From JBGPLH01 sp041486365 [NCBI: Thermodesulfobacteriota bacterium] (GTDB taxonomy: Bacteria > JAUYMQ01): a stretch of 5,604 nucleotides of DNA. Each line of letters opens with the position of its first letter. Position 1 is the stretch's first letter. Where the stretch lies: contig JBGPLH010000230.1 in NCBI GenBank assembly GCA_041486365.1, positions 1 through 5,604 of the forward strand, read 5' to 3'. Of the stretch, positions 1 through 5,604 are shown one piece after another. A program made the position numbers and the translations under genes. Under the pieces are notes generated by a model that was not told where the DNA came from, searched no databases, and saw only the letters and a program-made list of their open reading frames with translations.

Positions 1-573
1 GACGAGCAGCTTCGTGCGGAGCCCCAGCGGCTTGACCCGCTCGCCCAGCGCCTCGACGGACCGGTAGGCCTGGAAGGACGCCGCGACGGGCCGGAGGATC
101 CCCTTGAGCAGGAAGAACGAGAAGAGGCTCGAGATGAGTCCCGAGGACAAGCCCGCGAAGAAGATCTTCAGGAGGTCGTACCAGGACGTTCCGTGGAAGA
201 TCGCCATGTACGCGCCGGAGACCAGCGTTCCGATCGTCCAGAAGACGATCCCCAGGACGAGCTGGTTGCGAGGATGGTCGATCGTGGCCGCGTAGACCTC
301 GCGCACCCGCTCGGGATCGGCGATCCGCAGACCCGCCAGCTCCTGCCGCCAGTAGTTGTCGAGGATCCTCTGGTCGCGGCGTGTCGCGAAGAGCGCGGCA
401 ACGAACAACACCGGGAAGAGCACGATGAGACACCCGATGAACTGGTTCACCTGCTCGCGCGACCAGCGAAGCAGCGACACGAGGAACAGCGCCGCGAGCA
501 CCGTGGCCAGGAGCGACACGAGCAGGGACGCCAGCCGCGCCCTCCGGATGATGTTGATCTCGGTTCGTTTCAT
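1..573 (-). CDS. Polytopic membrane protein, N-terminal part; probable chemoreceptor (MCP-like), cut by left edge
   Basis: The frame is open from ATG at 573-571 to the first base of the window (191 codons), so the C-terminal part is missing. The start follows a GGAGGGAG ribosome site (581-588) at good spacing. I see a basic N-terminus (MKRTEINIIRRAR), then hydrophobic segments at about residues 14-35, 44-63, 104-126 and 133-157, each likely membrane-spanning. A charged loop of about 40 residues, rich in Arg, lies between the second and third and should be cytoplasmic by the positive-inside rule. After the fourth segment comes a charged stretch ending GLRTKLLV, which looks like the lead-in to a fifth segment. 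No HAMP or methyl-accepting signalling domain is within view. Its place 76 bp after the second cheW, on the same strand, suggests a receptor for this Che system. A membrane adenylate cyclase or sensor kinase with the same N-terminal layout is the main alternative. Membrane topology is well supported; function is inferred from context. Confidence 0.72.
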   Translation of the reverse strand, partial: MKRTEINIIRRARLASLLVSLLATVLAALFLVSLLRWSREQVNQFIGCLIVLFPVLFVAALFATRRDQRILDNYWRQELAGLRIADPERVREVYAATIDHPRNQLVLGIVFWTIGTLVSGAYMAIFHGTSWYDLLKIFFAGLSSGLISSLFSFFLLKGILRPVAASFQAYRSVEALGERVKPLGLRTKLLV

Positions 574-649: not shown

Positions 650-1222
650 TCACGCCGCGCTCTCCGCCACCGGCCGCTCCGCGGACAGCGCGAGCAGCCG
701 CTCCGGCGCGATCACCAGGTACGCGTCCCCGGCGCGCGAGCACAGCCCCGCGATGAAGTCCGACCCCTTCGAAAGCGCCAGGGACGGCGGGGGCTGGATC
801 TGCGATACCGGGAAGCGCACGACCGGCTGCAGGGCGTCCACGAGCAGACCGGCCACGCGGCCGCCCACGACCACCACGACGATTCTCGAGCACCGGGGAT
901 CGACGATCGTGCCGCCTCCTCCCAGCCGCTGCCGCACGTCGACGACAGGAATGAACGTCCCCCGCAGGTCGATCACCCCCACGATTCCCTCGGGCGAGCG
1001 GGGGACCGGCGTCAGGCGCTGCACGCGCGTGACTTCCTTCACGGCGCGAACGTCCAGCAGGTAGCGCTCTTCCGCCACGCGGAAGCAGAGGAAGAGCCCC
1101 TCCTCCTCCGCGCAGACGCGATCCTCGGCGTTCATCGGGCGCGGGCCGGCGGCCTCGCCACGGGCCTTGACCCGCCCGGCCTCCCCGATCTCAGCCACGC
1201 TCCTCGCCGTTCGTTCCTTCAC
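650..1222 (-). CDS. cheW: CheW-type coupling protein, short form
   Basis: Adaptor that links receptors to the CheA kinase; cytoplasmic. 190 residues from a GTG at 1222-1220 that overlaps the TGA of the upstream cheW by four bases (GTGA), preceded by a strong GGAGG. The CheW fold covers about residues 43-180: FLCFRVAEERYLLDV at the start, then GVIDLRGTFIPVVDVRQRLG (residues 81-100), including the LRG arginine (R87) that is conserved in CheW and lies at the kinase/receptor contact in studied members, and DFIAGLCSRAG near the end. The first 30 residues are charged and poorly conserved in character; an internal ATG at 1135 (residue 30) is a possible later start giving 161 residues, but it lacks the coupled overlap. 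The run of five valines (IVVVVVGG) is a hydrophobic core strand. It differs clearly in sequence from the adjacent cheW, so this is an old duplication or two separately acquired adaptors, not a recent copy. Confidence 0.93.
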   Translation of the reverse strand: MKERTARSVAEIGEAGRVKARGEAAGPRPMNAEDRVCAEEEGLFLCFRVAEERYLLDVRAVKEVTRVQRLTPVPRSPEGIVGVIDLRGTFIPVVDVRQRLGGGGTIVDPRCSRIVVVVVGGRVAGLLVDALQPVVRFPVSQIQPPPSLALSKGSDFIAGLCSRAGDAYLVIAPERLLALSAERPVAESAA

Positions 1223-2169
1223 CGCGCCCCTCCCTGCGCGCCGCGATCCTCTTGCGCGACGCGGCGGATGGCCTGATCGGCGTCGATGGCCGGGTCGACC
1301 AGGAACGCCAGCACGGCCTCGGCCTTCAGGATCGCGATCAGACGGCCCTGGTGGCGGCACACACCCGCGAGGAATCCCGACTCATGGGCGCCGAGCAGCG
1401 CCGCGGGCTGGGTCACCTGGGAGTCGAGCACGTGGATCTTGTGCGAGACCGCGTCCACGGCCATGCCGATCCGCCTTCCCTCGTGAATCGCCACGACGAT
1501 CTTCGCGGACGGATACGTGACCTCGGCCGGCGGGAAACCCAGCCGGGCGCGTAGATCGAGCACCGGCACGATCTCTCCGCGCAGCGCGATGATCCCGCTG
1601 ATGAATTCCGGCACACCGGGGATCTCCGTGACCGGCCGGAGCCGTATGATCTCCCAGACACGCTGGATGTCGATCGCGTACTCCTCCTGGGCGATCGTGA
1701 AGCAGAGGAGATCGCTACCCGATTCCTCCGCCTCGTCCCCGGACCGGTGCCATACCTCCTCGGAGGGGAATTCGATCGCGGGCGGGGCGATCATGGCCTG
1801 ATCGGCGGGCGCCGCCTCGGACGGGGGCGCGGGAGCCGCGGGCTCGGGGATCGACACGGGCCTCTGGGCTGGAGATTCCGCGGCGACCTCGCCTTCCCCC
1901 TCCGGAATGAAAGAGGAGAGCAGCTTGAAATCCTCCGCCGGATCCTGCGGGCTCGACGACTCCGGCGTCTCCGGCGCCGCCTCTTTCACCGGCGGCGGTT
2001 CCCGGGAATCCCCCGGGCGAACGCCCGCGGCGCTCGATTCCGGCGGCGTGGAAGGTCCGGGCTCGTCCGGGGACACTGGGGGCCCGATCGCGGGCCCGCC
2101 CGATCGCTTCGCCGCCGCATTCTTCTGCCCGTTCCTCGGGCGTACGTTTCCGTTGCGTTCCTTGGCCAT
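1219..2169 (-). CDS. cheW: CheW-type coupling protein with a ~150-residue disordered N-terminal arm
   Basis: 316 residues, about twice the usual CheW length of 150-170. The C-terminal half (about 151-292) is a complete CheW domain: SDLLCFTIAQEEYAIDI, then EFISGIIALRGEIVPVLDL (residues 188-206) with the conserved LRG arginine at R197, ARLG, and SGFLAGVCRHQGRLIAIL. The first 150 residues are rich in Pro, Ala, Glu and Ser, with a basic head (MAKERNGNVRPRNGQKN), and should be disordered. One hydrophobic island interrupts the arm, EDFKLLSSFIPEGEGE (79-94), with a second weaker one around IEFPSEEVWHR (132-142). ATG at 2169-2167 is nine bases after the cheA stop, with AGGT (2174-2177) as a modest ribosome site. 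The arm could tether the adaptor to another cluster component or widen its reach in the receptor array; that is inference. The CheW call is secure. Confidence 0.94.
   Translation of the reverse strand: MAKERNGNVRPRNGQKNAAAKRSGGPAIGPPVSPDEPGPSTPPESSAAGVRPGDSREPPPVKEAAPETPESSSPQDPAEDFKLLSSFIPEGEGEVAAESPAQRPVSIPEPAAPAPPSEAAPADQAMIAPPAIEFPSEEVWHRSGDEAEESGSDLLCFTIAQEEYAIDIQRVWEIIRLRPVTEIPGVPEFISGIIALRGEIVPVLDLRARLGFPPAEVTYPSAKIVVAIHEGRRIGMAVDAVSHKIHVLDSQVTQPAALLGAHESGFLAGVCRHQGRLIAILKAEAVLAFLVDPAIDADQAIRRVAQEDRGAQGGAR
1223..1235 (-). promoter_or_regulatory. Ribosome binding site deciding the GTG start of the short cheW
   Basis: On the minus strand AGGGAGGGG (1235-1227) stands before GTG at 1222, with GGAGG six bases from the start. 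It lies inside the last codons of the upstream cheW, and the start overlaps that gene's stop as GTGA, the usual arrangement for translational coupling. This rules in GTG 1222 over the in-frame ATG at 1360, which would overlap the neighbouring gene by about 140 bases. Confidence 0.8.
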
Positions 2170-2178
2170 GGCGACCTG

Positions 2179-4260
2179 CTACTCCCGCCGGCGAACCGAC
2201 TGTTCGATCAGTGAGCCGACGTCGAGGACGAGGATCGTTTCCTGGTCGCCCAGTTCCGTGGCGCCGGCGATCCCCCGGATGTTCTGCAGCGATTTCCCCA
2301 GCGACTTGATCACGATGTCCTGCCGGTCGCGGAGGCGGTCAACGATGATCCCGAGCCGGTGCTCGGCCAGGCCCACCACCACGACGAAGCACTTTTCCGG
2401 CATTTCCCCCTCGCGGCGCAGCCGGAACGCCCGGTCCAGCCGGAGCAGTGGCAGGATCGCGTCGCGGAGCTGGAGTACCTCCTGCCGCTCGATCGAACCG
2501 ATCTCGGTCCGTGTGAGCGTGAGGCATTCCAGCACCGAGTTGAGCGGCACGGCGTAGGCACGTCCGCAGGCCTCCACCACGAGCGCCTGGATGATCGCGA
2601 GCGTGATCGGCAGCACGAGCGAAAAGCAGGATCCCTGGCCGGGGCGGCTTTCGATGTCGATGATCCCCGAGAGCTTCGCGATGTTCTGCTTGACGACGTC
2701 CATCCCGACGCCGCGGCCCGACACCTCCGTGGCCTCCCGCTTGGTGGTGAAGCCGGGGAGGAAGATCAGATCCAGGAGCTCACGCGGGGCGAGCGAGGCG
2801 TTTGCAGGGATAAGCGCCTTCTCGACGGCCACCTCCTGGATCCGGGTCATGTCCATCCCGCGACCGTCGTCCCGGACTTCGATCACGACGTGATTGCCGC
2901 GCTGCGCAGCGCGGATCCGGATGACGCCCTCCTCGGGCTTCGACGCGGCGCGGCGCTCGGGGACCGGCTCGATCCCGTGATCGATGGCGTTGCGGACGAT
3001 GTGCATCAGCGGGTCGATGAGCCCTTCGATGATCAGCTTGTCGAGCTCCGTCTCGGCGCCCTCCACCTCCAGACGCACCCGCTTCCCGGAGTCCCGCGAG
3101 ATCTTCCGCACCACCCGCGAGAGTTTGTCGAAGACCTGCCGCAGGGGGACCATCCGGACGTCCATGACGCTTTCCTGGAGATTGGCGAGCTTGCGGTCGA
3201 GCTGCTTCTGGAGCTTATCGAGCTCCAACGCGTAACCGGTGAACCCGTGCTCGGCCTTCATCCGATCGCCCAGGCGCCCCACGTTGGAGCGAACGAGGCC
3301 CATCTCGCCCACGAGGTTCATCAGGTGGTCGAGCTTGGCGATGTCGACCCGCACCGTCTCGGTGATCGACCGGAGGCTCCCGACCGCGTCCTCCAATCCC
3401 TCCTTCTCGCCGCGGGTCCCACGCTCCTCCTCAACCTCGCCCACCATCTCCCAGGCTGCCCCGGTGCCGGCGGGGCCCGGCTGCGCCTCCGGCGCGTCGC
3501 GGTACTCGAGCGGTTCGATCGTGACTCCCTGGCGGAGCTCCGCGCCCAGCTCGCGCTCGTTGCGCCGGGAGCCCAGCAGGATGTCGAATTCGATCTCGGT
3601 ATCACTGGCGGCATTGGCCGAGGGAAGCGTCGTGATCACCTCGCCGAGCGTCCGAAGCTGGGCCGTGAGATCGTTCAGCGAGTGGTCGAAGGTCGCGAGA
3701 TCGAACTTCGCATGGATCTTGTGGATCCGATTCCGCTCCAGCACGTTCTCGGAGAGACGGTGCTCCTCGTACTCCGTGAGCACGCCGAGGATTTCGGGAT
3801 CGATTCGCAGCCGTTCGATCGGGTTCTCCGGGCCCTCCGACTTGCGAACAGACACGGCGGCGTCCAGGCGCACCAGCATCGTGTCCACTTCGTGCGGGTC
3901 CCCGGTCCCCGCCCCCGCGGAAGCCTGCTCCACGATCCGTCCGAGCAGCTCCAGCGACTCGAAGAGCAGGTCGAGCAGCGATCCCGTGAGTGTGATCTTC
4001 CCGAGGCGCAGCTTGTCGAGCATCTCCTCCAGGTGATGGGCGAGCGTCGTCATCGTGGAGATGCCGAACATCCCCGCCAGCCCCTTCAGCGAGTGGGCCG
4101 CCCGGAAGATCTCGTTCAACGTATCCGGATCGATGCGGCCCCCCTGGTCCCGGCGATCCAGGCGCAGGAGATTCTGATTCAGCCGCTCGATGATCTCCTC
4201 CGCCTCGGAGATGAACTCCTTCATCGCCTTGGGGGAGATCTCCTTGTGTTCGCCGGCCAT
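2179..4260 (-). CDS. cheA: Chemotaxis histidine kinase CheA
   Basis: 693 residues. Domain order: P1/Hpt about 10-135, with the phosphoacceptor His56 in RAAHSLKGLAGMFG; a P2-like segment about 147-240 (EYEEHRLSENVLERNRIH, then FDLATFDHSLNDL and LGEVITTLPS); an acidic, Gly-rich linker about 255-300; the P3 dimerisation helices about 302-375; the P4 ATPase about 376-553; and the P5 CheW-like coupling domain about 556-690. All ATP-site boxes are intact: N box HIVRNAIDHGIE (N424, H428), G1 DDGRGMD (464-470), F box FLPGFTT (500-506), G2 GRGVGMD (515-521), and GQGSCFSLVLP. It should therefore be an active kinase. There is no fused receiver, so phosphotransfer goes to a separate protein, most simply the CheY-like receiver just upstream. 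The ATG at 4260 has GGAG (4272-4275) eleven bases away, longer than ideal; no better in-frame start is seen. The stop is TAG at 2181-2179. Confidence 0.98.
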   Translation of the reverse strand: MAGEHKEISPKAMKEFISEAEEIIERLNQNLLRLDRRDQGGRIDPDTLNEIFRAAHSLKGLAGMFGISTMTTLAHHLEEMLDKLRLGKITLTGSLLDLLFESLELLGRIVEQASAGAGTGDPHEVDTMLVRLDAAVSVRKSEGPENPIERLRIDPEILGVLTEYEEHRLSENVLERNRIHKIHAKFDLATFDHSLNDLTAQLRTLGEVITTLPSANAASDTEIEFDILLGSRRNERELGAELRQGVTIEPLEYRDAPEAQPGPAGTGAAWEMVGEVEEERGTRGEKEGLEDAVGSLRSITETVRVDIAKLDHLMNLVGEMGLVRSNVGRLGDRMKAEHGFTGYALELDKLQKQLDRKLANLQESVMDVRMVPLRQVFDKLSRVVRKISRDSGKRVRLEVEGAETELDKLIIEGLIDPLMHIVRNAIDHGIEPVPERRAASKPEEGVIRIRAAQRGNHVVIEVRDDGRGMDMTRIQEVAVEKALIPANASLAPRELLDLIFLPGFTTKREATEVSGRGVGMDVVKQNIAKLSGIIDIESRPGQGSCFSLVLPITLAIIQALVVEACGRAYAVPLNSVLECLTLTRTEIGSIERQEVLQLRDAILPLLRLDRAFRLRREGEMPEKCFVVVVGLAEHRLGIIVDRLRDRQDIVIKSLGKSLQNIRGIAGATELGDQETILVLDVGSLIEQSVRRRE

Positions 4261-4306: not shown

Positions 4307-4702
4307 TTATTCACCCAACCCCGCCTTGCCCGCGAGCCCCAGGTGCTTCGCCACCAGCCGCTGGAGCACCTGCGGGTCGAAGGGCTTCGTCAGATACTCC
4401 TCCGCCCCCAGCTCCAGCCCCTTCACCCGGTCGCGGTCACCGCGCTCCGTGGTAACGATGATGAGCGGGATTCCCTTCATGAGCGGGTTGCGCTTCACGA
4501 AGCTCACCAGCTCCAGCCCGTTGATGTCGGGCATGTTGATGTCGGTGATGATCAGGTCCGGCTTCTCCTGGGACAGGAACTTGAGGGCCTCGAACCCGCT
4601 GGAGGTCTCCGTGATCTCGAAGCAGCCCAGATCCTCCAGGGTCGAGACCAGCAGCGATCGCATGGTCGATGAGTCGTCCACAACGAGTATCCTGGAACTC
4701 AC
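4307..4702 (-). CDS. cheY: Single-domain response regulator, CheY type
   Basis: 131 residues, a stand-alone receiver domain with no output domain. Key residues are all present: acidic pair D9/D10 in ILVVDDSS, phosphoacceptor D54 in IITDINMPDINGLEL, T84 in PLIIVTTERGD, and K106 in YLTKPFDP, with Tyr103 at the position of the aromatic switch residue of E. coli CheY. Start chosen as GTG 4702-4700 because AGAGGTG stands seven bases upstream and the protein then begins three residues before the first beta strand, as in most CheY proteins. It ends with TAA 46 bases before cheA and is very probably phosphorylated by it. Output could be flagellar motor switching, pilus or gliding control, or a transcriptional route; nothing in the sequence decides. 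Named cheY for type, not proven orthology. Confidence 0.94.
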   Translation of the reverse strand: MSSRILVVDDSSTMRSLLVSTLEDLGCFEITETSSGFEALKFLSQEKPDLIITDINMPDINGLELVSFVKRNPLMKGIPLIIVTTERGDRDRVKGLELGAEEYLTKPFDPQVLQRLVAKHLGLAGKAGLGE

Positions 4703-4782: not shown

Positions 4783-5604
4783 TCATCTCTGCCCGGTCTC
4801 GGAAAGGCGCCTTTCAAGGATCGCCTTCTCCAGCGCCAGCCCGGCCTGCGTCAGGAAGATCTCAAGCGCTTCCGTATCTCCCACGGGTCGCTCTTCCGGG
4901 AGATTGTCTCCATAGAGCAGCGCCACGACCTCGTCGCCCACGGTGATAGGCGCCACGAAAACCTCCGCGGGCTTGCCGCGCCCGAGGAGCGCCTGCAGGC
5001 GATCGTTCCCGGGGGAGGACTCTAGCCGGCCCCGCACTACGGACCGTTTCCCGACCACGTCGTGGAACACCGAGGGCACGTCCAACGGGATCCGGATGCG
5101 CCGGAGTGCCGCGCCGCGCGCGACGGAGGAGCGCCGTGCCGAGGAAGCCTCGTCCCGCAACACGCCCGGGCCGAGGCCGAACCCCCCGAGGCCGATCGCT
5201 TCGCCGTTCTTCACCATGAATAGCACCGCCCGGTTCATGATCTCCGCGGCGAACCGGAGCATGAGGAGCGTGATCTCCGCCCCCGTTTCCGGATTGGTGA
5301 GCTCGCAGAGCATCGATTTCAGGATCGCGAGCCCCGGCGTCGTCGTCCGGTCGGGTGCGCGATCCCCGTCGGTGAACAGATCGGGATCCGAGATACCGCC
5401 CAAGGCGCGGCGGAGATCGATCGTCCCCTCGCCTTCGCCGTCTGCCCTGTCATTGTTCGAGTCGACCGCCGCTCCGCGGCGGATCTCCGGGCTCGGGACG
5501 TCATTCTCAGAGTCGGCCCTGTCATTCTTGGAGTCGACCGCCGCTCCGCGGCGGATCTCCGGGCTCGGGACGTCATTCTCAGAGTCGGCCCTGTCATTCT
5601 CGGA
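4783..5604 (-). CDS. GAF-like regulatory protein, C-terminal part (DUF4388/PATAN-associated type?), 5' end outside window
   Basis: The frame is open from the right edge to TGA at 4785-4783: 273 residues, start not in view. Residues 1-67 are hydrophilic, made largely of 24-residue tandem repeats and then an acidic GEGEG stretch. From about residue 95 to 267 there is a globular domain with GAF-like character: LKSMLCELTNPETG, a helix FAAEIMNRAVLFMVKNGEAIGLGGFG, RIRIPLDVPSVF, then EVFVAPITVGDEVVALLYGDNLP and GDTEALEIFLTQAGLALEKA. I recall this C-terminal module from proteins whose N-terminus is a DUF4388 (PATAN) domain, often found near chemosensory genes in high-GC deltaproteobacteria-like genomes; that match is from memory and the N-terminal domain is not visible here. 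It probably senses or binds something and regulates, since no enzyme motif is seen. The spacing to cheY is 80 bases, on the same strand, so it is likely co-transcribed. Confidence 0.82.
   Translation of the reverse strand, partial: SENDRADSENDVPSPEIRRGAAVDSKNDRADSENDVPSPEIRRGAAVDSNNDRADGEGEGTIDLRRALGGISDPDLFTDGDRAPDRTTTPGLAILKSMLCELTNPETGAEITLLMLRFAAEIMNRAVLFMVKNGEAIGLGGFGLGPGVLRDEASSARRSSVARGAALRRIRIPLDVPSVFHDVVGKRSVVRGRLESSPGNDRLQALLGRGKPAEVFVAPITVGDEVVALLYGDNLPEERPVGDTEALEIFLTQAGLALEKAILERRLSETGQR
5440..5604 (-). repeat. 72-bp in-frame tandem repeats in the linker of the GAF-like protein
   Basis: Two full units, 5533-5604 and 5461-5532, are identical except at one position (C at 5601, T at 5529), which changes Glu to Lys. 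A 21-base partial unit at 5440-5460 matches at 17 positions. Each full unit encodes 24 residues: SENDRADSENDVPSPE followed by IRRGAAVD. Within the unit SEND recurs (SEND-RAD-SEND), so there is also an internal sub-repeat built on GAGAATGAC. Each full unit holds a perfect seven-base-pair hairpin, CCGCCGC-TCC-GCGGCGG on the plus strand, at 5466-5482 and 5538-5554. The array reaches the window edge, so the true copy number is unknown. Near identity points to recent expansion, or an assembly artefact; the unit length, a multiple of three, keeps the frame open. Confidence 0.93.

What the first reader, a model, noticed from the sequence alone, without database searches (positions are those of the whole stretch)
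5440..5604. Near-identical 72-bp coding tandem repeats in a regulatory protein linker
Two full copies differ by one base while a third partial copy has decayed, a pattern of recent slippage or unequal exchange. The unit is 24 codons, so copy-number change would alter the linker length of a signalling protein without breaking the frame. The peptide (SEND-RAD-SEND... IRRGAAVD) is charged and likely disordered. This could be a contingency-like length polymorphism in a chemosensory gene.
Basis: partly seen in the sequence, partly recalled or inferred. Interest (0 to 1): 0.6.

Follow-up and report, generated by a model that had tools for sequence, protein, structure and literature searches.

The report
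In-frame linker repeat, chemosensory GAF protein
A gene beside a bacterial chemotaxis-type gene cluster carries at least two nearly identical 24-amino-acid repeats, most likely in a floppy linker between two signalling domains; this is an ordinary kind of repeat, and whether its copy number varies or matters is untested.

Summary
The repeat is real: 19 nt of a diverged copy (5440-5458), two 72-nt units (5459-5530, 5531-5602) differing at one base, and 2 nt more, cut off by the window end, so the copy number is a lower bound. The minus-strand ORF through it ends in a GAF-fold domain. Relatives are DUF4388 - receiver (not in all) - linker - GAF proteins, mostly next to CheY and CheA as here; all 28 distinct relatives examined have at least 202 aa of open frame before the GAF match. 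The array lies where they have linker, so 'linker of a signalling protein' is probably right, though the window lacks the gene's 5' part. None of those 28 has a comparable repeat. An open frame proves little (5 of 6 frames are open), but the gene's frame has the best codon fit of the six. Copy-number polymorphism and contingency function have no evidence either way. An in-frame dispersed palindromic element is not excluded, because the source genome is not held. Verdict: probably an ordinary coding minisatellite; low interest.

The parts
5440..5458 (-). partial, diverged repeat copy (19 nt) at the edge of the array nearest the GAF domain
5459..5530 (-). full 72-nt (24-codon) unit 1
5531..5602 (-). 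full 72-nt unit 2, one base different from unit 1 (5601C against 5529T; Glu against Lys)
5603..5604 (-). 2 nt of a further unit; array cut by window end
4783..5604 (-). open frame of the repeat-bearing protein, 273 codons and stop, open at its 5' end
4786..5343 (-). GAF-fold domain (residues about 88-273), 39-51% identical to the 28 relatives examined
4307..4702 (-). CheY-like single receiver-domain protein (start taken as the GTG at 4702; one search lists a longer frame to 4786)
2179..4260 (-). CheA (Hpt, H-kinase_dim, HATPase_c, CheW domains)
1219..2169 (-). CheW-domain protein with long N-terminal tail
650..1192 (-). second CheW-domain protein (start not settled; one search lists the frame to 1360)

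Best explanation
It is a coding minisatellite: a 24-codon unit tandemly duplicated within the interdomain linker of a DUF4388/(receiver)/GAF signalling protein encoded next to CheY-CheA-CheW. Shown: the near-exact whole-codon duplication, the GAF domain and the neighbourhood. Inferred: that the gene continues upstream into DUF4388 and perhaps a receiver domain; that the unit arose by local duplication and was copied recently by slippage or unequal exchange; that the charged repeat is an unstructured spacer, each copy adding 24 residues between the N-terminal module and the GAF domain. The likeliest functional status is near-neutral variation in a length-tolerant linker; a tuning effect on signalling is possible but unshown.
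For: 72-nt periodicity far above chance. Of six frames the ORF frame has the best codon score against this window's other genes: 8.3 bits per unit, inside the range of true in-frame 24-codon pieces (n 119, median 15.2, 5% point 1.9) and above the out-of-frame 95% points of -9.2 and -4.6. Codon-position GC of the array (0.65/0.49/0.82) resembles the GAF part (0.72/0.48/0.84). 28 of 28 distinct relatives examined have 202-463 aa of open frame before the GAF match, 3 of them cut at the locus end. DUF4388 in 11 of 13 and a receiver domain in 11 of 13 genome contigs relatives. pLDDT below 50 over the array. No sigma-70 promoter-like or terminator-like site in 5000-5604.
Against: The gene's 5' part lies outside the window, so its N-terminal domains are inferred. 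The array is stop-free in 5 of 6 frames, and one plus-strand frame also scores 4.2 bits. Some pairwise alignments reach back to residues 52 and 60 (L008, L003), but the conserved motif before the GAF domain in relatives is not detectable in the window (987 of 2000 shuffles of residues 1-90 and 539 of 2000 of residues 56-90 reach the best score), so certain homology stops near residue 88, about 97 nt short of the array. None of the 28 relatives examined has such a repeat. Low pLDDT may partly reflect the 14-row alignment.
Confidence: 0.7

Rival explanations
1. A dispersed palindromic element (REP, MITE or Rickettsia-palindromic-element like) inserted in frame into the linker and then tandemly amplified; the sequence evolves as selfish DNA, not as a linker.
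For: Each unit holds a perfect 7-bp inverted repeat with a 3-nt loop (CCGCCGC/GCGGCGG; paired in the folds) and a nested GTCATTCT..GAGTCG repeat. REPs and RPEs inside genes are in print (passages of PMC10969869; abstract, one section and passages of PMC3733652).
Against: The unit's folding is not unusual (67 and 52 of 200 shuffles fold as well). No further copy in the window outside the array, no exact core match in the 45 fetched loci, 0 matches in three viral-contig scans; plasmids and phages gave one record each at E 0.5, ten relatives' genomes only short matches, best E 0.006. 0 of 395 genomes at E<=1e-4, but without a positive control and with few candidates scored per genome. The 7-bp stem and 3-nt loop do not fit the CGTC families (stems 8-9 bp, loops 4-5).
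Confidence: 0.15
2. The array is intergenic DNA upstream of a short GAF-only gene that starts after it (for instance at the TTG at 5403).
For: A TTG start at 5403 gives 206 aa with all of the GAF domain; homology between 5343 and 5440 is not secure.
Against: 28 of 28 relatives examined have a long N-terminal part in frame. No Shine-Dalgarno-like stretch at normal spacing before the TTG; the nearest, GAGGGGA, ends 20 nt upstream (read). No in-frame ATG/GTG/TTG between 5404 and 5604. No promoter-like site. Codon fit of the array.
Confidence: 0.1
3. Assembly artefact: copy number (or the duplication itself) is wrong because the sequence ends in a repeat.
For: The window ends inside the array, as contigs often do at repeats (general knowledge; whether the window end is a contig end is not known). 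No reads are available.
Against: The copies carry distinct variants (5443, 5455, 5457/5529/5601, 5458), so it is not a plain re-reading of one copy.
Confidence: 0.1

Closest known systems
Intragenic (coding) tandem repeats of bacteria, e.g. the 26 arrays described in Legionella pneumophila Philadelphia (PMC2639597; abstract and Results section read)
   Same: Unit length divisible by 3 and tens of bases long; high identity between copies, which in that study went with copy-number polymorphism; lies within an open frame
   Different: Nearly all of those had three or more copies and all had strain comparisons; here two full units are seen, the array is cut, and no second strain was available
Rickettsia palindromic elements and intragenic REPs (PMC10969869 passages; PMC3733652 abstract, one section and passages)
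   Same: Short palindrome-bearing DNA that stays open when translated inside a host gene
   Different: Defined by many dispersed copies; none found in what could be searched, source genome not held; stem and loop size do not fit the CGTC families (other REP families were not compared)
DUF4388-(receiver)-GAF proteins encoded beside CheY-CheA in Desulfuromonadales-type and CG2-30-53-67 genomes (names from record titles)
   Same: GAF domain 39-51% identical; the same CheY and CheA neighbours in 10 of 13 loci
   Different: None of the 28 examined has a comparable repeat

Membership tests
Coding tandem repeat (minisatellite) | Head-to-tail near-identical units above chance | tested here: met
Coding tandem repeat (minisatellite) | Unit length a multiple of 3 and array open in the gene's frame | tested here: met
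   72 nt; (weak, since 5 of 6 frames are open)
Coding tandem repeat (minisatellite) | Lies within a gene, with coding homology on both sides | tested here: inconclusive
   GAF homology downstream; upstream side outside window; homology not secure in the 97 nt next to the array
Coding tandem repeat (minisatellite) | Copy number differs between strains (common, not required) | not testable with these tools
   no second strain; own genome not held
DUF4388-(receiver)-GAF protein | C-terminal GAF fold homologous to the family | tested here: met
DUF4388-(receiver)-GAF protein | N-terminal DUF4388 (and receiver) domain | not testable with these tools
   gene cut by window end; Pfam finds no domain in the 273 aa at E<=0.001
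REP / RPE / MITE | Dispersed copies in the same genome | not testable with these tools
   own genome not held; no convincing copies in what was searchable
REP / RPE / MITE | Palindrome more stable than composition predicts | tested here: not met
   z -0.41 and -0.53 for one unit as DNA, -0.09 for the array as RNA
CGTC REP | 8-9 bp stem, 4-5 nt loop | tested here: not met
   7-bp stem, 3-nt loop against PMC3733652 section 6

The most novel reading that the evidence does not exclude
In an unsampled bacterial lineage, a short palindrome-bearing element colonises interdomain linkers in frame and then amplifies in tandem, so that selfish DNA sets the spacing of domains in a chemosensory regulator: the way Rickettsia palindromic elements enter proteins, but in an environmental bacterium and as arrays.
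Probability: 0.08. Interest if true: 0.55.

Novelty: new member of a known kind. Interest (0 to 1): 0.2.

Why it matters
If copy number varies, the locus would be a natural series of linker lengths between a DUF4388/receiver module and a GAF domain beside a CheA system. Otherwise it is one more in-frame repeat in a tolerant linker. The wider lesson is that an open frame through a GC-rich repeat proves little; comparison with relatives carries more weight.

Tried and rejected
Decayed copy below 5440 (one TRF row extends to 5406): rejected, chance-level. Conserved pre-GAF motif as a bridge of homology up to the array: not detectable. Stable RNA or DNA structure: not above shuffles. Rfam: no match at the gathering scores. 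Promoter or terminator: none by simple consensus scan. Pfam and NCBIfam on the window's 273 aa: nothing (at E<=0.001; at E<=0.1), so the GAF assignment rests on relatives (GAF_2 in 6 of 13 at E<=0.01) and on the fold. Literature search for GTCATTCT-type strings: only unrelated papers among the 10 listed of 52. My recollection that GTCATTCT-like motifs occur in dispersed repeats of environmental bacteria is memory only and found no support. Closer relatives: none above 55% identity, so the lineage is not named. Searches for precedents of linker repeats or of this protein family: titles and starts of abstracts in the listed rows only; general coding-repeat papers, none seen on this protein family. 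I make no claim that it is absent from print.

Full report
Observation. The minus-strand open frame 4783-5604 ends, at its open 5' side, in a tandem repeat. From 5440 to 5604, 89 of 93 positions match at lag 72, and the longest exact lag-72 run is 70 nt, against a maximum of 15 in 200 Markov resamplings of the window over lags 20-199. The best register is a 19-nt partial copy (5440-5458), two full units (5459-5530 and 5531-5602) that differ at one base, and 2 nt of a further unit. The array is cut by the window end, so copy number is a lower bound. Each unit also holds an inner imperfect repeat 21 nt apart.

Is it coding? Stop-freedom does not decide: five of six frames are open through the array. 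Codon usage leans towards the ORF frame: 8.3 bits per unit, best of the six, within the range of true coding pieces and well above out-of-frame pieces; a plus-strand frame scores 4.2. GC by codon position resembles the rest of the gene. Between full units the only difference is a Lys/Glu codon; the partial copy adds two synonymous changes and Asn at that codon (read). No rate ratio can be drawn from so few sites.

What the gene is. Pfam sees nothing in the 273 aa at E<=0.001 and NCBIfam nothing at E<=0.1, but 13 loci in genome contigs (by record title Desulfuromonadales, Geobacter, Desulfuromonas or Deltaproteobacteria, and two CG2-30-53-67 Nitrospirae MAGs) encode relatives at 39-51% identity. 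More were found in 19 of 247 (E<=1e-10), 6 of 8 (E<=1e-10) and 20 of 297 (E<=1e-20) genomes; searches drew mostly the same genomes. An AlphaFold model of the window protein on the 14-row alignment gives pLDDT of 70 or more to 162 of 273 residues and below 50 to residues 1-88 and 150-154. Foldseek matches in the PDB are led by GAF domains (best E 4.6e-8, 3trc). Of the 13 relatives in genome contigs, 11 carry DUF4388 and 11 a receiver domain; three of the 13 are cut at their 5' end.

Position of the array. I took 32 of the 45 loci held (leaving out L014-L021, fetched by weak DNA matches; L022, L036 and L037, repeats of places already held; and L038-L039, weak second matches), which gave 28 distinct genes. 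All 28 have 202-463 aa of open frame before the GAF match, 3 of them cut at the 5' end. Nine further genomes gave no locus and were not examined for repeats; the open frames listed for their best matches are 362-595 aa. So a protein of this family is expected to continue far upstream of the GAF domain, and the array sits in the stretch that in relatives is linker. Against this, the short conserved motif before the GAF domain in relatives cannot be recognised in the window (987 of 2000 shuffles of residues 1-90 and 539 of 2000 of residues 56-90 reach the best score). Pairwise alignments to L003 and L008 do reach back to residues 60 and 52, but secure homology ends near residue 88, about 97 nt before the array, and the upstream domains are outside the window. 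The alternative start at 5403 (TTG) has no ribosome-binding-like stretch at normal spacing (read), and no promoter- or terminator-like site is found in 5000-5604.

Neighbourhood. The window reads GAF protein, CheY, CheA, CheW-domain protein, CheW-domain protein, and an unassigned membrane-like protein. In 10 of 13 relatives' loci a CheY and then a CheA lie directly downstream of the GAF gene; in L011 a CheA alone does (31% identity); L009 has no CheA match and only a weak CheY match 0.9 kb on; the locus of L001 ends too soon to tell. This supports 'chemosensory gene'.

Is the repeat shared or dispersed? None of the 28 relatives has a comparable tandem repeat (highest TRF score 52 against 302 in the window). 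A 16-base core of the unit has no exact match in the 45 fetched loci, and no further match with up to 3 mismatches in the window outside the array. Viral contigs: 0 in three scans. Plasmids and phages gave one record each at E 0.5; ten relatives' genomes gave only short matches, best E 0.006. 0 of 395 genomes matched at E<=1e-4, but without a positive control that shows little. The source genome is not held, so a dispersed element cannot be excluded. The unit's fold, with its 7-bp palindrome, is no more stable than composition predicts, and the palindrome does not fit the CGTC repeat families.

Mechanism. Shown: near-exact whole-codon tandem duplication in an open frame that ends in a GAF domain. 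Inferred: generation by slippage or unequal exchange; a flexible charged spacer whose length changes by 24 residues per copy; near-neutrality. Not shown: polymorphism, contingency function. In Legionella, 26 selected intragenic repeats all had unit lengths divisible by 3, and 7 of 26 varied among strains, those with higher internal identity on average (PMC2639597, abstract and Results read). By that pattern this array could vary, but that is an extrapolation.

Verdict. A genuine, probably coding minisatellite in the linker of a chemosensory-associated GAF protein: a new member of a known kind. The contingency reading is untested.

Noticed in passing
window 5107-5169, minus strand (protein residues 146-148 and 158-166): The window's GAF domain has 12 extra residues in two places where all 13 aligned relatives have gaps; residues 150-154 between them have pLDDT below 50.
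   Followed up: partly
L001 and L012, residues about 59-111 of the DUF4388 protein: An MshE-type c-di-GMP-binding motif model matches inside the DUF4388 stretch, below its curated cut-off (30.1 and 35.6 against 38 bits), hinting at c-di-GMP input to these CheA-linked proteins.
   Followed up: no
window 1-573, minus strand: Membrane-like protein (by eye) without a Pfam match at E<=0.001 after the two CheW genes, cut by the window end.
   Followed up: no
L012, L013, L027, L030: Relatives of about 420-430 aa seem to lack the receiver domain between DUF4388 and GAF (Pfam for L012; the others by length and sequence), so the stretch before the GAF domain is itself variable in evolution.
   Followed up: partly
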